Source of the DNA: Bacteroidota bacterium
Lineage (GTDB): Bacteria > Bacteroidota > Bacteroidia > CAILMK01 > JACPUW01
Length of the DNA: 64,000 nt
Reading direction: 5' to 3'
NCBI GenBank assembly: GCA_016192035.1
Contig: JACPUW010000018.1
Location: 1 to 64,000, forward strand
A program made the position numbers and the translations under genes. This document shows, one piece after another, positions 1 to 8,195 of this stretch. The notes beneath the pieces are model-generated. The model was not told the origin of the DNA, did not search any database, and saw only the letters and a list, made by a program, of their open reading frames with translations. Numbering within the stretch: the stretch's first letter is position 1; each line of letters starts with the position of its first letter.

Positions 1-250
1 ACGTAACCACCTACTTTTGACATCACTTTTTGCGCTTACGAGGCTTCATCATTGGTTCACTTTCGTTCAGCTCATTGCATTTGCACCTACAGAAATTCTA
101 ATTTCCGTTTTTCCTTATCGCTCACCACAATGCAGTTTCCTTGCAATGCGGCATAAGGTGGTTTAATAACTATTCCTGAAAATCGTTATTGAGAGGCCTA
201 CTCTCATCTGTTTTAAAGCATCAGCGGCCTAAGGCCGCTATTCAAGTCAC
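1..250. other. Unresolved AT-rich left flank of the cassette array
   Basis: No intact gene is seen. On the minus strand two short open stretches lie in different frames. One reads IVIKPPYAALQGNC and ends KLEFL-stop. The other ends in a basic tail, MMKPRKRKK-stop, near position 44. They could be pieces of one frameshifted gene, perhaps an old cassette gene or a transposase tail. I cannot assign a family, and chance open frames are possible. The stretch lies on the distal side of the first attC-like element, where the next cassette of the array would be expected. Confidence 0.3.
223..239. repeat. Short perfect palindrome (8-bp arms)
   Basis: AGCGGCCT-A-AGGCCGCT has two perfect 8-bp arms around one base. 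It sits just outside the leftmost attC-like element, in otherwise AT-rich sequence. Its role is unknown. It could be a hairpin or terminator remnant, or a protein-binding site. Confidence 0.5.
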
Positions 251-379
251 ACACGTTTTGCAGCTACCCGAAGGTGGCGATTTCGAAGCACTTCACTGTC
301 AACCAAGCAAAAACTTTGATAGAAGCACAAAGCTTGATTTAACCACTGAACCGCCACTTTTGGGTAGGTGCTGTTATGC
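251..379 (-). repeat. attC-like element 1
   Basis: An imperfect palindrome of about 128 bp. The left arm (TTTTGCAGCTACCCGAAGGT) pairs with the right arm (CCACTTTTGGGTAGGTGCTG). The right end is GTTATGCAC. Read on the minus strand this gives GTGCATAAC directly behind the stop of the gene at 389-1030, as an R''-type core. The left core is degenerate: CACACG replaces the TAACG seen in the others. It is about 96% identical to the element at 3127-3264, with roughly five differences by eye. Confidence 0.8.
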
Positions 380-388
380 ACAGTAGTT

Positions 389-1030
389 CTATATACCATA
401 ATTGTCACAAAGTTTTCTAAGAAGTCCTTTTCTATCTGTCTCTGCTTGTTCAAATTCTTTTTCGTCAACGCCTATTTTGTAATTGTCAAACATATAGAAA
501 TAACTACAACAATGATAACAATCAAGCTTTTGAATATTGCTTAGTCCCTTCTCAAGAATTGCAATTGTATTTTCTATCCCTTTTTTCTTCACTGTCAATT
601 GGTAAAACCTTTTGTCAATTGGATAATGCCATTTCTCAAAAGATATCAGTCCTGGTGACAAGCAATTTATTGCACTATCAAGTTCTCCAATAAATTCATA
701 CGCAAAAGAATACTTCAAGAGTTTGTCAAGCTTATATTCCCAATAGTCATTTGCATCTGAATAAATATTTTCTCTTTGTTTTTCATTAAATGTCCCACGA
801 AAACTTAATGCTATACGATAATATTTTTCTGCTTCAATGCTATCTCCGATGTTTAACTTATTTTCAGCTATTTTCCAATTCTTATCAAAATATGTCTGGT
901 TGGGTTGAAATGGATTTAAAAATAAAATACGGTCTTGCCCCGATTTTATATAAGTGAATTTCGCAAAGTAAAATATCGTCAGTCCAACTATCAGAATAAT
1001 TGTCAAGGTTATCTTGGCGATGGCTTTCAT
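389..1030 (-). CDS. Membrane-anchored hypothetical protein (cassette gene)
   Basis: Encodes 213 aa of no family I recognise. The start at 1030 (MKAIAKITLT) is chosen because the longer frame runs into the attC-like element, and because this start gives a clean N-terminal hydrophobic helix (about residues 5-25) before a soluble domain. That layout suggests a membrane anchor or uncleaved signal. The soluble part is helical in appearance, with possible TPR-like stretches (AEKYYRIALSF; ENTIAILEKGL), so a protein-protein interaction role is conceivable but not shown. A CYHCCSY cysteine cluster lies near residue 180. The gene is AT-rich and fills cassette 255-1044, with its start about 10 bp from one element and its stop about 10 bp from the next. 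The same tight packing is seen for every gene in this array. Confidence 0.75.
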   Translation of the reverse strand: MKAIAKITLTIILIVGLTIFYFAKFTYIKSGQDRILFLNPFQPNQTYFDKNWKIAENKLNIGDSIEAEKYYRIALSFRGTFNEKQRENIYSDANDYWEYKLDKLLKYSFAYEFIGELDSAINCLSPGLISFEKWHYPIDKRFYQLTVKKKGIENTIAILEKGLSNIQKLDCYHCCSYFYMFDNYKIGVDEKEFEQAETDRKGLLRKLCDNYGI

Positions 1031-1038
1031 ACTATTGT

Positions 1039-1171
1039 GCATAACGTTTTCGGGCTTTGCGTTCGGGCGGGTTTCGGAGCACAAAACTGTCTGCCAGCAC
1101 TACACTTGAATAGAAGCACAAAACTCCAAGTTTGCACGTCACCCCGCCTGACGCAAAACCCGTGTTAGCGG
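1039..1171 (-). repeat. attC-like element 2
   Basis: Begins ATAACGTT and ends GTGTTAGCGG. The inner arms CGGGCTTTGCG and CGCAAAACCCG, and GGCGGGT and ACCCCGCC, are inverted repeats with unpaired bases, as in attC hairpins. The middle holds the shared motifs GGAGCACAAAACTGTC and TAGAAGCACAAA. The left core TTATGCAC is complementary to the end of the cassette at 255-1044. The right core GTTAGCGGT matches the far end of the next cassette. Confidence 0.85.
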
Positions 1172-1189
1172 TTCGCCCTTCTTGTTTCG

Positions 1190-2071
1190 TCATATGATTT
1201 TGTTTACATCAATGTCATACCCTGCCGCTTTTAATTCTTTAGCCAAACTAATTTTCCAATACTCTGAACTGTCTATTTCTAAGTATAATAGTCCGTAAAG
1301 GTCACTTGGTAATTCAACGCCTTTTGTATAAAGTGGGCAAACTTTATTTCTTCCTAATTTCCCTATAAAATATCCGAGTTCAAGTATCACATTTTGTCTT
1401 GCTCGTGGATTTAAATTTTCATCTTTCTTTGCCTTTCCAAGGTCGTCATCTGTAAGCAATATGATTGCAAAACCTACATTTGAATGTTCTTCAAATTTTT
1501 CAATGATTGTTTTTCCAGAATTTGCTTGTTCGTGTAGAATTATTGGATTTAAGCCAAGTTTTTCCAATGTCCTTGCAATATTTATTTTTACTTCATTATT
1601 GTGTCCGTGAACAATAAACACATTATTGTTGCTTATATCTTCTGAACTCGTTGTCGAATTTGAAACAACTTTGTCAGGAACTTCGGATTTAATAAGCTCA
1701 ACTTTTGCAACAAGCTGTTTCAAGTTGTTTATTTTGTTTTGAACCTTGTCTTTAAACTCTTTCAGTTCGTCTCTTTGTCTGTTGCCACCAACTACCAACC
1801 CGAAGAATTGGTTAACTCTATCATAGTCAGTTTTATATTCGTTGTATTCGTTATTAAATGATTGTTTAAGAAGTTCCGAATTATAGTCGTCCCAGTCATA
1901 ATAATTTTGTTTTGCTTCTTCAAGCTGGGGTCTTGTCTGAATTTGTCTATTTAAAATTTCTTCTGCTATTTGAATTCTATTAGCTAGAACGTCTTTAAAA
2001 TAGTCCTTTCCAACAACTAAAAGTGTCGGTTGTTTTAATGGTTCTGTCTGTTTTGGTTTTCTTGTTGCCAT
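1190..2071 (-). CDS. TIR-like (predicted nucleotide-binding, PF10137-type) protein
   Basis: Encodes 293 aa. Residues 1-135 are charged and helical, probably a coiled-coil or sensing region. The C-terminal domain (about 149-285) matches the TIR-like predicted nucleotide-binding family: NNVFIVHGHN opens the Rossmann-like fold, followed by FAIILLTDDD and RARQNVILELGYFIGKLG. E231 in the VILELGYF motif is the likely catalytic glutamate. Characterised TIR relatives degrade NAD+ or sense nucleotide signals in anti-phage systems such as CBASS and Thoeris. No cyclase or ThsB-like partner lies next to it, so a stand-alone or differently triggered effector is inferred. The gene is the sole content of cassette 1045-2102. 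Its AT-rich composition suggests acquisition. Confidence 0.85.
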   Translation of the reverse strand: MATRKPKQTEPLKQPTLLVVGKDYFKDVLANRIQIAEEILNRQIQTRPQLEEAKQNYYDWDDYNSELLKQSFNNEYNEYKTDYDRVNQFFGLVVGGNRQRDELKEFKDKVQNKINNLKQLVAKVELIKSEVPDKVVSNSTTSSEDISNNNVFIVHGHNNEVKINIARTLEKLGLNPIILHEQANSGKTIIEKFEEHSNVGFAIILLTDDDLGKAKKDENLNPRARQNVILELGYFIGKLGRNKVCPLYTKGVELPSDLYGLLYLEIDSSEYWKISLAKELKAAGYDIDVNKII

Positions 2072-2093
2072 ATCTATTCTGTCTTTTTAGGGT

Positions 2094-2231
2094 GACCGCT
2101 AACGGTTTGGCGCTTGGCGCAGTGGCGGAATTCGGAGCACAAAACTGTCTATACACCACAAAAATTGATGCGAGGTAGAATGTTCAATTAACCACTTCAC
2201 CCGCCATTGAGCCAAACGCCTGTTAGCAACC
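2094..2231 (-). repeat. attC-like element 3
   Basis: Begins GCTAACGG and ends GCCTGTTAGCAACC. Arms GTTTGGCGCTTGGCG and CATTGAGCCAAACGCC, plus AGTGGCGG and CCGCCA, can pair. The middle contains GGAGCACAAAACTGTC, shared with element 2. The left core TTAGCGGT belongs to the cassette on its left. The right core GTTAGCAACC belongs to the cassette on its right. Confidence 0.85.
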
Positions 2232-2238
2232 GTAATTC

Positions 2239-3081
2239 TTAGTGTTTCGAAGTGTCTTGTCCTTTGCTGTATTTGATGTAAAATTTATCAGCCGAAACAT
2301 TCTTAAAATATTTTGTCATTGTCATACTTTTTTGTCCGCAATACTCATCATATTTTGATTCAAACATTTCGCTTTCTGGATAATTTGAAATTTCTGTTAC
2401 ATAAAATTCATTCTCAAATTTTATAAGGTTATCAGTCTGCCCTATGGTATAAGCAATTCTATTGCTGAAAACAAGAGGACTCTGTTCTTTTGAGAATGTC
2501 TTAGATTTAATCTGCTTTTTAGTTGGGTATTTAAATAAATCGCAATCTCTGAAAAATGAATCATTGATACTATATTCAGAAATAATCTTTGAAGTCTTTG
2601 ATGGAATACATACAATTTTTTCTTCATTGTAGGAAACTGAAAAACCTGAAGATGTCATTAACCCTACTGTATTAGTTGCTGAAATTCTATTCGTTTGAAT
2701 TAAATCCAAGTAATTTAATCCTGTTACTGATTTTGTTGCAGTTGTCCCACGAGAAGTATTTGCTCCTGAACTTGTCGAATTTGTAAAAACTCTATTTCTA
2801 TAGTAATTGTAAGAAACTCCGTTTAGAATAAAAAAACTTTCTTCCAAATTCAAGTAAATATTTTTGTCAGTTTTGTTAAAAAATTGGAACCCAATATTTC
2901 CACCTTCACCCCATAGGTTGTATGAAACCTTACAGTTTTCATCTTCATAAACTAAAAGGTTGTCCTTAACAACTAATTTGTCGGAAGGTGCTGTTTTATA
3001 AACTTGAAAATAAGATGTCGATACGCAAGATGTCAACATCATTGCAATTAATGCGGGTAAAAGGATTTTTTTGGTTTTCAT
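2239..3081 (-). CDS. Hypothetical lipoprotein (cassette gene)
   Basis: Encodes 280 aa with a lipoprotein signal: MKTKKILLP, a hydrophobic core, then MLTSC as lipobox with C19 as the lipidated residue. The mature part is rich in Ser, Asn, Tyr and Lys and reads as beta-rich. It has a low-complexity stretch NSTSSGANTSRGTT near residues 100-112. I recognise no family. It would sit in the inner or outer membrane facing the periplasm, or on the surface. It is the only gene of cassette 2103-3136, and its stop lies 10 bp from the attC-like element. Confidence 0.8.
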   Translation of the reverse strand: MKTKKILLPALIAMMLTSCVSTSYFQVYKTAPSDKLVVKDNLLVYEDENCKVSYNLWGEGGNIGFQFFNKTDKNIYLNLEESFFILNGVSYNYYRNRVFTNSTSSGANTSRGTTATKSVTGLNYLDLIQTNRISATNTVGLMTSSGFSVSYNEEKIVCIPSKTSKIISEYSINDSFFRDCDLFKYPTKKQIKSKTFSKEQSPLVFSNRIAYTIGQTDNLIKFENEFYVTEISNYPESEMFESKYDEYCGQKSMTMTKYFKNVSADKFYIKYSKGQDTSKH

Positions 3082-3126
3082 TGTTGATTTTATTTAAGTT
3101 AATAATGATGTGTTTCAGTTTTATTA

Positions 3127-3264
3127 TGGTTGCTAACGTTTTGCAGCTACCCGAAGGTGGCGATTTAGAAGCACTTCACTGTCAACCAAGCACAAACTTT
3201 GATAGAAGCACAGGGCTTGATTTAACCACTGAACCGCCACTTTTGGGTAGGTGTTGTTATGGGC
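3127..3264 (-). repeat. attC-like element 4
   Basis: Begins GGTTGCTAACGTTTTGCAG and ends GGTGTTGTTATGGGC. It has the same arm sequences as element 1 and differs from it at about five positions. Unlike element 1 it keeps the TAACG core. The left core (TTAGCAACC on the minus strand) matches the end of cassette 2103-3136. The right core (GTTATGGGC) matches the far end of cassette 3137-5060. Confidence 0.85.
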
Positions 3265-3274
3265 TGGGCATCGG

Positions 3275-4207
3275 TTATTCAATCAACTTAACGTCTTTGG
3301 CGATTTGCTCCCCCTTGTCATTTTTGGTTATACTAAATGATACTTTGTCACCGACTTCTAAGTCATTGAAATCTGTATCAATTAGGCTTGTAAAATGAAA
3401 AAATAGATTATTTGGAGGGTATTTAATGAAACCAAAACCTCCTTTGAGAGTTAAAATCTCGCTTGAATTGATTTTCTCAGTAGTTGAATCTGTTTTTACT
3501 TGTGATGTTCCTTCAGGTTTCTTAAAAACACGGTCTTTATTTTGTGGGACGAATAGGTTGTTAATCAATGGTTCGTTTTTTCTAACTCTGTTATCTATAA
3601 CTTCATGCATTGCAACTGGATAGGTCACTTCTTCTAATAAATCTTGGGAAGTTCTTGTTACCATTTCCTTACCATAGTTGTTTGTGTATTCAAAATCCCA
3701 GCTCAGCACCATGACTCTAGTGCCAAGAGTGTTTAGTTTTCGGATTAGAGGAACATAATCCCCATCTGATGCAATAAGAACAAGAACATTAAATCGTTTG
3801 TAGAATGCGAGTTCAAATGCTTCCAAAGCTAGCCAAACATCTATACCTTTTTCGTGCCTTACTCCGCTTTGGGAAGTTTTTACTGGCAAATAGTGAGTTG
3901 TTACACCTTCTGAGCTAAGAATATCATCAAACATTCTATCGTAGAAAAGTGAATTTCCTTGTTGAGATGCCTCTTGAGCATTTAATCTGCCTCTGAAATA
4001 ATGTGCATCTACTATTTGGCAAAGTCTCTCATCAGTGCCTTCTTGTTGAGCTACTTGGTTTCTTATAAAATGATGTAAACCAGAAATACTTATTCTGCTT
4101 TTTCTTTCATGGAAGTAGTTGTAAAAGTTACTCACATGAAGAAAGTAGTTTCCATCATAGAATACTCCGATTCTAGTAAGGCTTAGGTCTTTGTTGTTTG
4201 CGGTCAT
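3275..4207 (-). CDS. NYN-domain ribonuclease with C-terminal cold-shock domain
   Basis: Encodes 310 aa. The N-terminal NYN (PIN-like) domain spans about residues 12-190. Acidic residues expected to bind metal appear in GVFYDGNYF (D18), KGIDVWLALEA and LIASDGDYVPL. A linker leads to a cold-shock-type OB fold in the last 65 residues, with its two RNA-binding strands visible as GGFGFIKY and LFFHF. The protein is therefore best read as a metal-dependent RNase brought to single-stranded RNA by the OB fold. It is transcribed just downstream of another NYN gene (8 bp between 4213 and 4207 ends, same strand), and the two share cassette 3137-5060. Pairing of two NYN nucleases with different RNA-binding modules suggests joint action on RNA. 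The target is unknown. Confidence 0.85.
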   Translation of the reverse strand: MTANNKDLSLTRIGVFYDGNYFLHVSNFYNYFHERKSRISISGLHHFIRNQVAQQEGTDERLCQIVDAHYFRGRLNAQEASQQGNSLFYDRMFDDILSSEGVTTHYLPVKTSQSGVRHEKGIDVWLALEAFELAFYKRFNVLVLIASDGDYVPLIRKLNTLGTRVMVLSWDFEYTNNYGKEMVTRTSQDLLEEVTYPVAMHEVIDNRVRKNEPLINNLFVPQNKDRVFKKPEGTSQVKTDSTTEKINSSEILTLKGGFGFIKYPPNNLFFHFTSLIDTDFNDLEVGDKVSFSITKNDKGEQIAKDVKLIE

Positions 4208-4212
4208 CTTTA

Positions 4213-5004
4213 TTATTTTATTTTTACGAATACATGTTTAATGTTGGCTTTTCCAGTAACTCTTTCATCAACTTCAATTGATGATATGCTTTTAACCAAT
4301 GGCACCAATTTAGTAAACCCATAGTTCCTAGAATCAAAATTAGATTTTTTCTTCAGAAGTAAATTCCCTACTTCAGCAAGCGAAGCCCAACCACTTTCAT
4401 CTGCTAAGTCTGTTATAGTATTTGTCAAAAGTTTAATTGCTTCTTCATCAATTTTGCTCACATTGGAGTTAGATGGAGTCGAAATTGTTTGCTTATTCTC
4501 TTTAGTTTTATTCGATTTTGAGGTAGGTGCCACAACTAGACCATCTCCAATTGTGCTAAGGACTTCGATATAAATAAACTTGTTACACGCAGATACGAAA
4601 GGGTTGGGCGTTTGCTTTTTCCCTAAACCAAATACTTTCATTCCTGCTTCTCTAAGTCTTGAGGCAAGTCTAGTAAAGTCACTATCACTGGAAACGAGGA
4701 AAAATCCCTCAACACGTCCGGTGTATAAAATATCCATTGCATCTATTATCATGGCCGAATCCGTTGCGTTCTTTCCAGTGGTATAAGCATACTGTTGTAT
4801 CGGGATGATGGAATTATCTAATAGGACTTTCTTCCAATGGTCTAGATTTGGCTTTGTCCAATCACCATAAATTCTTTTATAGGTAGGAGTGCCATATTTG
4901 GCTATTTCTTCAAGCATTTCACGAATATTGGCACTTGGGACATTGTCAGCATCGATTAAGACTGCTAATTTAATGTCGATGCTTGTTTCAATTGAAGTAT
5001 TCAT
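4213..5004 (-). CDS. NYN-domain ribonuclease with LOTUS/OST-HTH-like C-terminus
   Basis: Encodes 263 aa. The NYN domain covers about residues 10-150: LAVLIDADNVP carries D18 and D20, ATDSAMIIDAMDIL and FFLVSSDSDFTRLASRL complete the acidic site, followed by the typical GMKVFGLG strand. A Ser/Thr/Lys-rich linker leads to a winged-helix-like C-terminus (about 185-263, with DESGWASLAEVGNLLLKK and DSRNYGFTKLVPLV) that fits the OST-HTH/LOTUS family, an RNA-binding domain often fused to NYN in bacteria. It is the first gene of its cassette. The companion gene at 3275-4207 follows directly. The RNase role is family knowledge; the partnership is inferred. Confidence 0.85.
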   Translation of the reverse strand: MNTSIETSIDIKLAVLIDADNVPSANIREMLEEIAKYGTPTYKRIYGDWTKPNLDHWKKVLLDNSIIPIQQYAYTTGKNATDSAMIIDAMDILYTGRVEGFFLVSSDSDFTRLASRLREAGMKVFGLGKKQTPNPFVSACNKFIYIEVLSTIGDGLVVAPTSKSNKTKENKQTISTPSNSNVSKIDEEAIKLLTNTITDLADESGWASLAEVGNLLLKKKSNFDSRNYGFTKLVPLVKSISSIEVDERVTGKANIKHVFVKIK

Positions 5005-5052
5005 AGTAATGATTAATTGGTTATCTCAGTTAATTGTTGTCGTTTTTGCCTT

Positions 5053-5188
5053 GCCCATAACGTTCGGCCGCTTTGCGAAGGCGGGGATTTTCAGCACTAA
5101 ACTTCATTAAATGCACAAAGCTTGGATTTAGCACTTCTCTGTCATAGAAGGACGAAACCCCCGCTTTTGCAAAACGGCTGTTGGCGGT
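5053..5188 (-). repeat. attC-like element 5
   Basis: Begins CCCATAACGTTCGGCCGCTTTGCG and ends ACGGCTGTTGGCGGTTCG. Arms CGGCCGCTTTGCGAAGGCGG and CCGCTTTTGCAAAACGGCTG pair with bulges. The interior has CAGCAC and TGCACAAAGC, echoing the GCACAAA motif of the other elements. The left core TTATGGGC matches the end of cassette 3137-5060. The right core GTTGGCGGT matches the start of cassette 5061-8256. Confidence 0.85.
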
Positions 5189-5201
5189 TCGTTGTTCTTT
5201 G

Positions 5202-7127
5202 TCAGTCGAATTTAAGTTGTCCATTGTCAATTAGTTCTGCATACATTGTTGCACCTTTTTTAGTTATTTTTATTCTGTCTTGCAATTGACTATTTATAAG
5301 GTTTTCAACGTCTCCATTTGTCTTGAAGCTTTTGGAAAGGCTTTTTAAGTCAGCAAGTTTCAATTTCTTTTTCAACTCTACTTGTTCAAGAATTTGACTA
5401 CCTAAAACTGAAATTGTTGGTGTGTATTTTTCAGTTGGCTCATTTACAGTATTTGATTCGATTGATGAAGCCTTTAAATCTTCTTCAATTTGTTCCTTTT
5501 TTTCTTGCTCGGTCTTGCTTTGGGAGCTTTCAAATTCTATATGTCTTTCCGTTTTATTTTTTTGATATTCTCCAATTGTTTCAGAGTATGCGGAAATTAA
5601 TGTCTTAACATTTGATTTGTCTTCGGTAATAGATTCTGTTAAGGTCTTTGGGAGAATTGCTGCCCCATAAATGCTACCCCAAAGAGTGTAGTAAATTAAT
5701 GAGTGTTGAATTTCTTCTCTTTCATTGTTTTCAATGAACCTTAAGAAATCCCTACCTGATGTAAACAGAACAGCTATAGATTTTAAAACTTCGTTTGAAG
5801 TTCTTGAAATGTCAAAACCGCCCCTTAGGCTGTCAAATGATTTTAGTAATTCAACAAGATATTCCCGCTCTTTAGAACCGTCAAAATTGTCAATTGTGTC
5901 TTTAAAGTGTTTGGCAAGGTCAATGAGAATAGTTTTTCGATTAGTGAAAAAAGTTTCAAGGTCAGGGATGTTGTCAGTTTCAATGAAGAATTTCAAGCAT
6001 TGAAGCAAATATTTCTTTTCATTTTCTAAAAGACCTTCTGGAATAAATAGTTCCATTTTGTCATTTACAAAATGGGGTCTTACAAGTGACTCAAATGTTA
6101 GCTTGTTGGTTTTTCTTGATAGATTAATTTCATCTTCAATTTTATTTCTAACATCTGAAAATGCATTGTTGACTCTTTCAATATAGTTACTTGGATACTT
6201 TGAATTGAACTTTGAATTAATTGCTCTTTTTAGTTTTTCTAGCTTTAGTGAAAGTGGAAGTTCTGCCTTTGATGTTATAAGTAAACCTTCAATAAGAAGA
6301 TTAAATGCAGATATGCCAAATACTTTAGATTGTTTTAGGGTGTTTAGTAACTCAGATGTGAATGAAGAATTAGAACCTAACATTATAGCTTCTTCTAATT
6401 TTTCAACTGTTTCATAAGTCTTGAGTATTTTGTCAATTATTTCTAAAACCTGCTTTTTTTCAAATTCATTATTGTCCGAAACCTTGTTTAGAAACAATGA
6501 AAGGTTGTTATTCAAAAACCTTAGCAGAATTGAAATTTCTTGCCATTCTTTTGTCGTTAAATTTGTATAAGCAATTGAACTACCTAGAATAGCACCAAGT
6601 ATTCTGTTTAGTTTTCTTTCCTTATAGAAAGTCAAGGAATTGAAATTGTTATTAACGGTTGGAAATACTATTAATGGTATTTCATTGACGTAGCAATCTA
6701 CTTTTATAACTTCAGAATTTTGTTTCGCCAAAGCAGAATACTTTGTTTCTATACTCTTTAATGACTTAGCAAAGGTTTCATTGAGTTCTTTCTCTCTCCT
6801 GAACAATAATTTGAAGTTGTTAAACAGAAATACAGTATTATCAATTATTACATAATTGAGTCCATTTTCTGTAGTTTGCCATTTGCTTTCGGTTTTTTCA
6901 ATTTCAATTTCAATTAAGACTGGAAAGCCATAGTCCTTGTCAAGTTCTCGGTTGTGGAATATGGGTTTTTCATAGCCAACCAAAAAGTCTTCACATTCAT
7001 TTAAAAAGGTCGTTGTTGCCCTTTTGAAACTGTATTTTCTATTAGGATAAAAGGAACAGGGCGAAATTGATAGTGTTGTAAAAACACTATTGAAGTCGTT
7101 TGAATTGAACGGAATATATACTCTCAT
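5202..7127 (-). CDS. Large hypothetical protein paired with an SF1 helicase (cassette gene)
   Basis: Encodes 641 aa. I recognise no domain and see no signal peptide or membrane helix. The first 110 residues look like a mixed alpha/beta fold, the middle (about 110-520) is helical, and a charged linker near 540-580 (ERHIEFESSQSKTEQEKKEQ) leads to a C-terminal piece resembling a winged helix (KSLSKSFKTNGDVENLINS). It is downstream of the helicase gene, 12 bp apart on the same strand, in the same cassette (5061-8256). The pair is therefore probably one functional unit. Helicases coupled to an unknown large partner are common in phage-defence modules, but no direct evidence of that role is present here. 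Confidence 0.75.
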   Translation of the reverse strand: MRVYIPFNSNDFNSVFTTLSISPCSFYPNRKYSFKRATTTFLNECEDFLVGYEKPIFHNRELDKDYGFPVLIEIEIEKTESKWQTTENGLNYVIIDNTVFLFNNFKLLFRREKELNETFAKSLKSIETKYSALAKQNSEVIKVDCYVNEIPLIVFPTVNNNFNSLTFYKERKLNRILGAILGSSIAYTNLTTKEWQEISILLRFLNNNLSLFLNKVSDNNEFEKKQVLEIIDKILKTYETVEKLEEAIMLGSNSSFTSELLNTLKQSKVFGISAFNLLIEGLLITSKAELPLSLKLEKLKRAINSKFNSKYPSNYIERVNNAFSDVRNKIEDEINLSRKTNKLTFESLVRPHFVNDKMELFIPEGLLENEKKYLLQCLKFFIETDNIPDLETFFTNRKTILIDLAKHFKDTIDNFDGSKEREYLVELLKSFDSLRGGFDISRTSNEVLKSIAVLFTSGRDFLRFIENNEREEIQHSLIYYTLWGSIYGAAILPKTLTESITEDKSNVKTLISAYSETIGEYQKNKTERHIEFESSQSKTEQEKKEQIEEDLKASSIESNTVNEPTEKYTPTISVLGSQILEQVELKKKLKLADLKSLSKSFKTNGDVENLINSQLQDRIKITKKGATMYAELIDNGQLKFD

Positions 7128-7139
7128 TTTGTCATTTCT

Positions 7140-8195
7140 TTAGAAGGGTAAATCGCTGCTTGCAGATGATTTGTTTTTTTCGTTGTGATACTCAAACAAG
7201 TTTCTGTCAATGTTTGCAATGAAAGTAGAAAGGTGGTTTGAATACAGGATGAATAAATCTCTATAGCTCCTTGTTAAAGCTACATAAAGAGGATTTCTAT
7301 CTTTCTCGTCACCGGAAATACACATAGGAATGAAAACTGCTTCAAATTGCAACCCTTTTGCACTATGGTATGTCATTAGCTTTGGGTTGTCTGTTTTAAA
7401 GTCCAAATCCATAGAACCTGCACCATATCCAATCTTAGCTTCAACTCCCCATTTTTTACTGTCGAAATATTTTTTTGCGGTTTGAACATCATTGTTGGTC
7501 GGAAATAAAATGCCAACGTCTGTATAATTTTGAGCTTTAACTACATCAATTATGTAATCAAGTTGGTCATTGAACGTGGAGCACTCTACAAGACGTGGTT
7601 TATTTACTCCTTCTTTGTTACACCTGTCAACAAGTGGGTCGTTAGATAAACTTACTTTTTCTGCAACTCTAGCAACTTTCTTTGGTAGTCTATGGTTAAT
7701 AACCAAATTCTCCATAGGGATTCCAGTTTGAATTTGGATTTCTTCCATTGTCAATAGTTTCCCCTTATTAGGCACATTTTTGTATAACTGTTGTGCAGAG
7801 TCCCCAAATAAAATAAAATGCTTTTTGGCTGCTTGTTGCAATTCTCTTAATTCATCAGTATCGAAGTCTTGAACTTCGTCAACGATGATATATTCTGCCG
7901 ATGGTTTGTCTCGTCTGTTTATCCATTCCCAATGATAAAGAACCTTTGATTCGTCAACCCCAATGGTGTGAATACCATCTTCAATGAATTGTTTTAGTGC
8001 TTTAGTAAAGACGATAATTAGGTAGTCATTATTCCCTTGCTCAGCAAGTTCTTTTGCTCTCCATAGTGCTAGAACGGTTTTTCCACTTCCTGCACACCCT
8101 TTAACAATGAATGAACTGTTTAGATTTCGTCTTACGATTCTTACTTGATAGTCGTCAAGTTCTGATTCGTTTATATACCAAGATTCTTTTGCCAT
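7140..8195 (-). CDS. UvrD/Rep-like superfamily 1 helicase-type ATPase
   Basis: Encodes 351 aa, short for a full UvrD (about 700 aa). It keeps the core motor motifs: a Q motif (LDDYQ, Q17), Walker A GCAGSGKT (33-40), Walker B with the DEVQDF signature (about 100-108), LFGDSAQQLY (motif III region), motif V-like MTYHSAKGLQFEAV and motif VI LYVALTRSYRDLFILYS. The 1B and 2B insertion domains are missing or minimal, so processive unwinding is doubtful. It may translocate on DNA or RNA, or act as a switch for its neighbour. It is the first gene of the array-proximal cassette and is followed at 12 bp by the 641-aa gene. Confidence 0.85.
   Translation of the reverse strand: MAKESWYINESELDDYQVRIVRRNLNSSFIVKGCAGSGKTVLALWRAKELAEQGNNDYLIIVFTKALKQFIEDGIHTIGVDESKVLYHWEWINRRDKPSAEYIIVDEVQDFDTDELRELQQAAKKHFILFGDSAQQLYKNVPNKGKLLTMEEIQIQTGIPMENLVINHRLPKKVARVAEKVSLSNDPLVDRCNKEGVNKPRLVECSTFNDQLDYIIDVVKAQNYTDVGILFPTNNDVQTAKKYFDSKKWGVEAKIGYGAGSMDLDFKTDNPKLMTYHSAKGLQFEAVFIPMCISGDEKDRNPLYVALTRSYRDLFILYSNHLSTFIANIDRNLFEYHNEKNKSSASSDLPF

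What the first reader, a model, noticed from the sequence alone, without database searches (positions are those of the whole stretch)
3275..5004. Pair of NYN ribonucleases with different RNA-binding domains in one cassette
Two NYN (PIN-like) nucleases are encoded 8 bp apart, one fused to a cold-shock OB fold and one to a LOTUS/OST-HTH-like domain. Both keep acidic metal sites. They share one cassette and must have been moved as a unit. A two-component RNA-cleaving system with unknown trigger is suggested, possibly anti-phage.
Basis: partly seen in the sequence, partly recalled or inferred. Interest (0 to 1): 0.7.

Follow-up and report, generated by a model that had tools for sequence, protein, structure and literature searches.

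The report
Integron-type cassette carrying two RNA-cutting enzymes
Two predicted RNA-cutting enzymes share one mobile gene cassette here, but in every other genome examined they occur separately, so they look like independent cargo of an integron-type cassette array with defence-like neighbours rather than parts of one conserved machine.

Summary
On the minus strand, 5004-4213 encodes an NYN + OST-HTH/LOTUS protein and 4207-3275 an NYN + cold-shock protein, 5 nt apart. Both keep the conserved acidic residues and model onto solved NYN domains. They fill one cassette (about 3137-5060) of an 8-kb, AT-rich, five-cassette array. attC-like sites follow every cassette, with 9-10-nt end pairing.

The proposed two-component system is not supported. 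No other locus examined has both genes. In 395 Bacteroidota genomes, OST-HTH and the NYN-CSD protein co-occur less than expected. Each gene sits alone in a cassette elsewhere (Mangrovimonas; genome G065). The host also has its own chromosomal NYN-CSD. Best reading: two stand-alone RNases, foreign, brought in as integron-type cargo. A defence role is plausible from neighbours but unproven.

The vehicle is more interesting than the pair. In other Bacteroidota the same attC family flanks a short tyrosine recombinase lacking the IntI additional domain: 27 hits in 253 kb beside it, none in 239 kb of control DNA. A C-terminal remnant of such a recombinase lies near an attC-like site in this genome. 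Whether it moves the cassettes is untested.

The parts
4213..5004 (-). NYN + OST-HTH/LOTUS protein (263 aa), first gene of the cassette; predicted PIN-like endoribonuclease
   Evidence: Pfam; invariant D18, D20, D82, D88, D91, D107, D109; model matches MARF1 NYN 5yaa Z 19.1 and OST-HTH 2kzv Z 9.0
3275..4207 (-). NYN + cold-shock-domain protein (310 aa), second gene of the cassette
   Evidence: Pfam; invariant D18, E119, D148, D150; model matches 2qip Z 17.9 and CSDs Z 10-12; 64% identical to the host's chromosomal copy at C13:36848-37777
3137..5060 (-). The two-gene cassette, from its start (TTATGGGC...) to the end of its own attC-like site; exact crossover bases inferred from the integron rule
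   Evidence: 9-nt end pairing between GTTATGGGC read on the minus strand from 5061 and GCCCATAAC on the minus strand at 3264-3256
3129..3263 (-). attC-like site belonging to the NYN cassette
   Evidence: cmsearch 144.6 bits, E 2.2e-34; hairpin fold; 96% identical over 125 nt to a site in G038
5053..5187 (-). attC-like site of the preceding cassette (helicase module)
   Evidence: cmsearch 51.5 bits, E 7.9e-11, not in the training set
2095..2229 (-). attC-like site
   Evidence: cmsearch 109.8 bits
1037..1171 (-). attC-like site
   Evidence: cmsearch 68.2 bits
251..380 (-). attC-like site, last of the array; in the training set of the model
   Evidence: cmsearch 153.2 bits
5202..7127 (-). 641-aa protein of unknown family, second gene of the first cassette
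   Evidence: homologue beside a helicase homologue in G076
7140..8195 (-). 351-aa UvrD/HelD-like superfamily-1 helicase, first gene of the first cassette
   Evidence: Pfam and PADLOC; cassette start pairs with its own attC-like site (GTTGGCGGT 5180/8257)
1190..2071 (-). TIR-domain protein (CAP12-PCTIR_TIR; PADLOC PDC-S35 candidate defence gene), separate cassette
   Evidence: Pfam 9.4e-39; PADLOC 1.5e-84
2239..3081 (-). 280-aa putative lipoprotein of unknown function, separate cassette
   Evidence: ORF; no Pfam match
389..1042 (-). ORF of unknown function, separate cassette
   Evidence: ORF (start codon chosen at 1042); no Pfam match; cassette pairing GTTATGCAC 373/1045

Best explanation
The two genes encode independent, stand-alone NYN (PIN-like) metal-dependent endoribonucleases. 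Each is steered by its own RNA-binding domain: OST-HTH/LOTUS in one, a cold-shock OB fold in the other. They are passengers of one integron-type gene cassette that was recombined, with other defence-like cassettes, into a GC-rich Bacteroidota chromosome. The cassette has an attC-like site at its 3' end and was probably mobilised by a tyrosine recombinase that is no longer at this locus. The pairing is local: in other genomes each gene travels alone. Expressed together they would degrade RNA with different preferences; the likeliest benefit is accessory RNA turnover or phage defence. Shown: domains, conserved acids, fold, cassette structure, foreign composition, lack of conserved pairing. Inferred: RNase activity, RNA preference, physiological benefit, loss of the recombinase.
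For: Domains and acids; folds. Five attC-like sites found in the array and none in the other 55 kb. Five cassettes each with 9-10-nt end pairing. All seven genes on one strand. GC3 0.25-0.31 against 0.66-0.68 for host genes. No other locus with both genes. Co-occurrence below expectation. NYN-CSD alone in a cassette in Mangrovimonas (GTTGGGCATA at 4602, TATGCCCAAC ending at 6974 of L007). NYN-OST alone in a cassette in G065 (GTTATATGC). NYN-OST is common as a plasmid gene (374 records). Anantharaman et al. 2010 (PMC2848206) found no conserved neighbourhoods with known RNA-processing systems for bacterial NYN+OST-HTH genes and proposed a stand-alone RNA-degrading enzyme.
Against: The 5-nt spacing with no attC remnant between the genes is what a co-selected, co-translated pair would look like. 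Only one such two-gene cassette is known, so a recently formed functional partnership cannot be excluded. RNase activity was not tested. Metagenome collections could not be searched.
Confidence: 0.62

Rival explanations
1. A dedicated two-component anti-phage RNA-cleaving system: the two nucleases recognise different RNAs or make successive cuts and act together on an unknown trigger.
For: 5-nt operon spacing inside one cassette; neighbouring TIR candidate-defence cassette and helicase module; Vibrio integron cassettes include many anti-phage genes (summarised in PMC12409362).
Against: No other locus with the pair; co-occurrence of the two families lower than expected; each gene found alone in cassettes; no PADLOC hit for NYN-OST, only weak partial ones for NYN-CSD.
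Confidence: 0.12
2. One or both proteins is an independent single-gene defence effector carried in an integron-type array that acts as a store of defence genes; the other gene is incidental.
For: NYN-OST as a lone cassette stands beside a PstI-type restriction-modification pair, an AriAB(PARIS)-like ATPase and PDC-M38A in G065; here beside a PDC-S35 TIR protein. An attC-like site of the same family lies within a few kb of Kiwa and RloB genes on an Emticicia plasmid.
Against: Association only. Chromosomal NYN-OST genes sit among metabolic genes (at most 6 of 71 neighbours match PADLOC at 1e-20).
Confidence: 0.2
3. The cassette NYN-CSD is an extra, foreign copy of the host's own NYN-CSD and supplements or disturbs its RNA-turnover role; NYN-OST hitch-hikes.
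For: Host copy at C13:36848-37777, 64% identical; similar length and the same domains.
Against: No data on expression; NYN-CSD genes have no conserved neighbours that would reveal the housekeeping role.
Confidence: 0.06

Closest known systems
Bacterial LK-nuclease (DUF88/NYN) + OST-HTH proteins (Anantharaman, Zhang and Aravind 2010)
   Same: Same two-domain architecture, conserved acids, wide lateral spread, no conserved neighbours
   Different: Here the gene shares a cassette with a second NYN gene
MARF1 (Limkain b1), animal NYN-LOTUS endoribonuclease
   Same: NYN fold (Z 19.1 and 18.0), LOTUS-type domain
   Different: [quoted passage not shown] this protein has one OST-HTH and no RRM hit
VPA0982 (PDB 2qip), Vibrio parahaemolyticus NYN protein of unknown function
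   Same: Closest solved NYN structure to NYN-CSD (Z 17.9)
   Different: No CSD in the solved chain (162 residues)
Chromosomal integrons and integrase-less attC clusters (CALIN) with defence cassettes
   Same: attC-like hairpins, paired cassette ends, one gene orientation, no integrase nearby, defence-like cargo
   Different: Bacteroidota host; where a recombinase adjoins such arrays in relatives it is short and lacks the IntI additional domain
Integron integrase IntI (TIGR02249; IntI4, PDB 2a3v)
   Same: The short recombinase stands at the head of the array, divergent from the cassettes, in L128 and L165; in L128 it scores closer to IntI than to XerC/D (205 against 192 and 193 bits)
   Different: Below the IntI cut-off (265 bits) and about 43 residues shorter where IntI carries its additional domain

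Membership tests
Bacterial NYN + OST-HTH (LK-nuclease) proteins | N-terminal NYN domain followed by OST-HTH | tested here: met
   Pfam NYN 12-147, OST-HTH 183-252
Bacterial NYN + OST-HTH (LK-nuclease) proteins | Conserved acidic metal site | tested here: met
   D18, D20, D82, D88, D91, D107, D109 invariant in 22 sequences
Bacterial NYN + OST-HTH (LK-nuclease) proteins | Stand-alone gene without conserved neighbours | tested here: met
   18 chromosomal loci share no neighbour family in more than 3 loci; no NYN-CSD beside it except in the window
NYN + cold-shock-domain proteins of Bacteroidota | NYN and CSD with conserved acids over the whole length | tested here: met
   46-70% identity to relatives; fold match of both domains
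NYN endoribonucleases | Metal-dependent RNA cleavage | not testable with these tools
   No biochemical data; inferred from MARF1
MARF1 | RRMs and multiple LOTUS domains | tested here: not met
   One OST-HTH, no RRM hit at E up to 1
Integron-type gene cassette | attC-type site 3' of the gene(s) | tested here: met
   cmsearch sites after each of the five cassettes; model trained without four of them
Integron-type gene cassette | Cassette start complementary to the outer box of its own attC | tested here: met
   9-10 nt in 5 of 5 cassettes; 2 hits in 84 other loci, one of them the true cassette L070
Integron-type gene cassette | Recombination by an integrase | not testable with these tools
   needs an excision or insertion assay
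Complete integron | Adjacent integrase gene | tested here: not met
   No TIGR02249 match over cut-off in the genome; no recombinase at the head of the array; the array lies at a contig end, so the assembly may be incomplete
Canonical IntI (for the short recombinase of related loci) | IntI additional domain | tested here: not met
   23 residues where IntI4 has 66 in L128; the other short recombinases aligned show no insertion there either
Known anti-phage system (PADLOC) | Strong match to a curated defence protein | tested here: not met
   NYN-OST no match; NYN-CSD best CSD_V 2.5e-7 and HEC-09 6.1e-5, partial
Conserved two-gene system | Repeated adjacency in unrelated genomes | tested here: not met
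   none apart from the window

The most novel reading that the evidence does not exclude
The cassette array belongs to a Bacteroidota lineage of integron-like elements whose recombinase is a short (about 270-306 aa) IntI relative without the additional domain that is held to define IntI and to be needed for integron recombination. These elements would store and spread defence cassettes between distant Bacteroidota; this genome keeps the array and a remnant of the recombinase.
Probability: 0.5. Interest if true: 0.75.

Novelty: new member of a known kind. Interest (0 to 1): 0.42.

Why it matters
The pair itself shows how usually chromosomal RNA-decay proteins become mobile accessory genes, and warns against reading a shared cassette as a shared mechanism. 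The array is a cassette store with defence-like cargo in Bacteroidota, a phylum where few complete integrons have been reported (PMC9024848). If the short recombinase is the engine, a defining feature of integron integrases is dispensable, searches that demand it would miss these elements, and the question of what IntI's additional domain is for becomes testable.

Tried and rejected
(1) Conserved pair: searched 41 GTDB loci, 395 Bacteroidota genomes, viral contigs, plasmids and phages (NYN-OST only); no second example. (2) Defence-island hypothesis for chromosomal NYN-OST: neighbours are mostly metabolic; no matched control set was scanned. (3) Conserved neighbours of NYN-CSD: none beyond one genus group (a second cluster there was only the opposite-strand frame of the gene). 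(4) The first end-pairing test missed the G065 case because its stop codon lies beyond the cassette's outer box; repeated with a wider stretch. (5) Canonical integrase as the only engine: 7 of 13 genomes with the short recombinase also have a full IntI elsewhere, but six (G046, G175, G389, G314, G196, G182) do not. (6) Exact search for the attC core in viral contigs: none. (8) Toxin-antitoxin reading: neither protein carries a recognisable antitoxin domain. (9) Literature searches for NYN genes in integrons found nothing direct; only open-licence papers are held.

Full report
OBSERVATION. Two ORFs lie on the minus strand: 5004-4213 (263 aa) and 4207-3275 (310 aa). Pfam gives NYN (2.9e-38) plus OST-HTH (2.2e-16) for the first and NYN (2.4e-16) plus CSD (2.7e-11) for the second. 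They are 5 nt apart, stop to start. In alignments of 22 and 23-28 sequences the acidic residues of the NYN site are invariant or nearly so. AlphaFold models (pLDDT 84 for NYN-CSD and 80 for NYN-OST) match solved NYN domains well above background: MARF1 5yaa Z 19.1 and VPA0982 2qip Z 17.6 for NYN-OST; 2qip Z 17.9 and 5yaa Z 15.0 for NYN-CSD. The second domains match OST-HTH 2kzv (Z 9.0) and cold-shock domains (Z 10-12). Catalysis itself is inferred, not shown.

THE CASSETTE ARRAY. Window 1-8000 is 30-36% GC; the rest is about 52%. GC3 of the seven array genes is 0.25-0.31, against 0.66 for atpD and 0.68 for the host's own NYN-CSD. Repeated imperfect hairpins separate the genes. A covariance model built from six elements, only one of them from this array (251-380), finds all five array elements (E 1.5e-36 to 7.9e-11) and nothing in the remaining 55 kb. 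Ten clear copies exist in the genome. Each cassette starts with GTT(A/G)nnnnn that pairs perfectly, over 9-10 nt, with the outer box of its own attC-like element: 373/1045, 1164/2103, 2222/3137, 3256/5061, 5180/8257. A chain of five such cassettes exceeds ten shuffles (best 3) and the rest of the window (best 2). All genes point the same way with the attC-like site 3' of each. The two NYN genes together form one cassette, about 3137-5060, second from the head. No integrase lies at the head and no IntI over cut-off is in the assembly, so by layout this is an integrase-less attC cluster (CALIN-like). The left end carries an Rfam group II intron match at 85-205, next to the last attC-like site and the contig end, so the assembly may hide more.

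IS THE PAIR A SYSTEM? Forty-one NYN-CSD relatives from GTDB contigs (up to 6 kb flanks) have no NYN-OST neighbour. Across all loci fetched, 74 carry NYN-OST-like and 76 NYN-CSD-like sequence (some loci overlap), and the only six with both are overlapping fetches of the window. In an even sample of 395 Bacteroidota genomes, OST-HTH occurs in 162 and NYN-CSD in 22. They co-occur in three (the own genome, G315 on different contigs, and G178 with a weak OST-HTH hit), against 9.0 expected; P for three or fewer is 0.005 if genomes were independent, which they are not. NYN-OST is common on plasmids (374 records) where NYN-CSD is absent. Both also travel alone as cassettes. In Mangrovimonas yunxiaonensis LY01 (L007) NYN-CSD lies in an array with GTTGGGCATA at 4602 and TATGCCCAAC ending at 6974, an IS3-like element being inserted ahead of the gene. 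In genome G065 NYN-OST lies alone between GTTATATGC boxes. The host also holds a chromosomal NYN-CSD at C13:36848-37777, 64% identical. Anantharaman et al. 2010 (PMC2848206) reported no conserved neighbourhoods with known RNA-processing systems for bacterial NYN+OST-HTH genes and proposed a stand-alone RNA-degrading enzyme. The pair is therefore best read as local, though its tight spacing leaves room for a recent partnership.

FUNCTION. The most likely biochemical role is metal-dependent RNA cleavage steered by the attached RNA-binding domain. For physiological role the evidence is association. In this array there is a TIR protein (PADLOC PDC-S35, 1.5e-84) and a helicase plus 641-aa protein that also stand together, in the same order, in G076. 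In the G065 array the lone NYN-OST cassette is beside a BsuBI/PstI-type restriction pair, an AriAB-like ATPase (3.7e-42) and PDC-M38A. By contrast chromosomal NYN-OST genes sit among metabolic genes. Integron cassettes elsewhere include many anti-phage genes (PMC12409362; PMC12444791). So a defence role is plausible for the cassettes and not shown for either NYN protein.

THE VEHICLE. In G065 the array begins 87 nt from a divergent 280-aa tyrosine recombinase. It scores 205 bits against the IntI model (cut-off 265), slightly above XerD (193) and XerC (192), and has 23 residues where IntI4 (2a3v) has 66; that this stretch is IntI's additional domain rests on PMC9668308 and general knowledge. 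Relatives at E <= 1e-40 occur in 118 of 395 Bacteroidota genomes, though at that threshold not all need belong to one functional group. Stretches upstream of 18 of them (searched together with L128 and L199, 253 kb in all) contain 27 matches to the window's attC model at E < about 1e-3, spread over 10-11 of the 18 regions and all on the recombinase's strand. Eighteen control stretches (239 kb) chosen from the same set of genomes contain none at E <= 0.5. One attC-like site in G038 is 98% identical over 124 nt to a site of this array, and sites on Chryseobacterium and Emticicia plasmids are 96% and 88% identical. In G038 the head of the array lies within about 10-90 nt of the recombinase ORF, depending on the start codon. 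Seven of 13 genomes tested also carry a full canonical IntI elsewhere, but six do not. The own genome keeps a C-terminal recombinase fragment at C31:112976-113095 that matches the short recombinases (45% over 51 aa, E 2e-9) about 0.7 kb from an attC-like element. Published accounts treat the additional domain as defining and necessary (PMC9668308, PMC2426708). Whether the short recombinase moves these cassettes is untested, and subscription literature could not be searched.

VERDICT. Observation confirmed; two-component interpretation not supported; best reading is two independent RNases as cargo of an integron-type cassette array. The pair is of modest interest; the array and its likely recombinase deserve follow-up.

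Noticed in passing
L128:14825-15667, L165:12358-13278, L162:12540-13382 and others (L161-L180): Short tyrosine recombinases without the IntI additional domain lie at or near the head of arrays with the same attC-like sites: 27 strong hits in 253 kb beside them, 0 in 239 kb of control stretches.
   Followed up: partly
window 5202-8195: A helicase + 641-aa protein two-gene cassette whose pair is kept in the same order in G076 (L199:418-3504); a candidate two-gene module of unknown function.
   Followed up: partly
window 85-205 (-): Group II intron D1-D4-2 match (98 bits, Rfam RF01999) directly beside the last attC-like site and the contig end; possibly an attC-targeting intron.
   Followed up: no
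L058:4977-5096 (G000:C31:112976-113095): Truncated C-terminal fragment of a short recombinase about 0.7 kb from an attC-like element in the own genome.
   Followed up: partly
L007:1-11228 (Mangrovimonas yunxiaonensis LY01): A chain of at least six cassettes with paired ends and attC-like repeats of a different sequence family, all genes on one strand.
   Followed up: partly
L201:6567-15142 (Emticicia plasmid pEMTOL01): attC-like sites 85-88% identical to the window's lie within a few kb of Kiwa (kwaA/kwaB) and a RloB family gene on a conjugative plasmid.
   Followed up: no
L058:5248-7410 (G000:C31): A lone attC-like element lies between a 177-aa unknown gene and a Fic-domain gene, away from the main array.
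   Followed up: no
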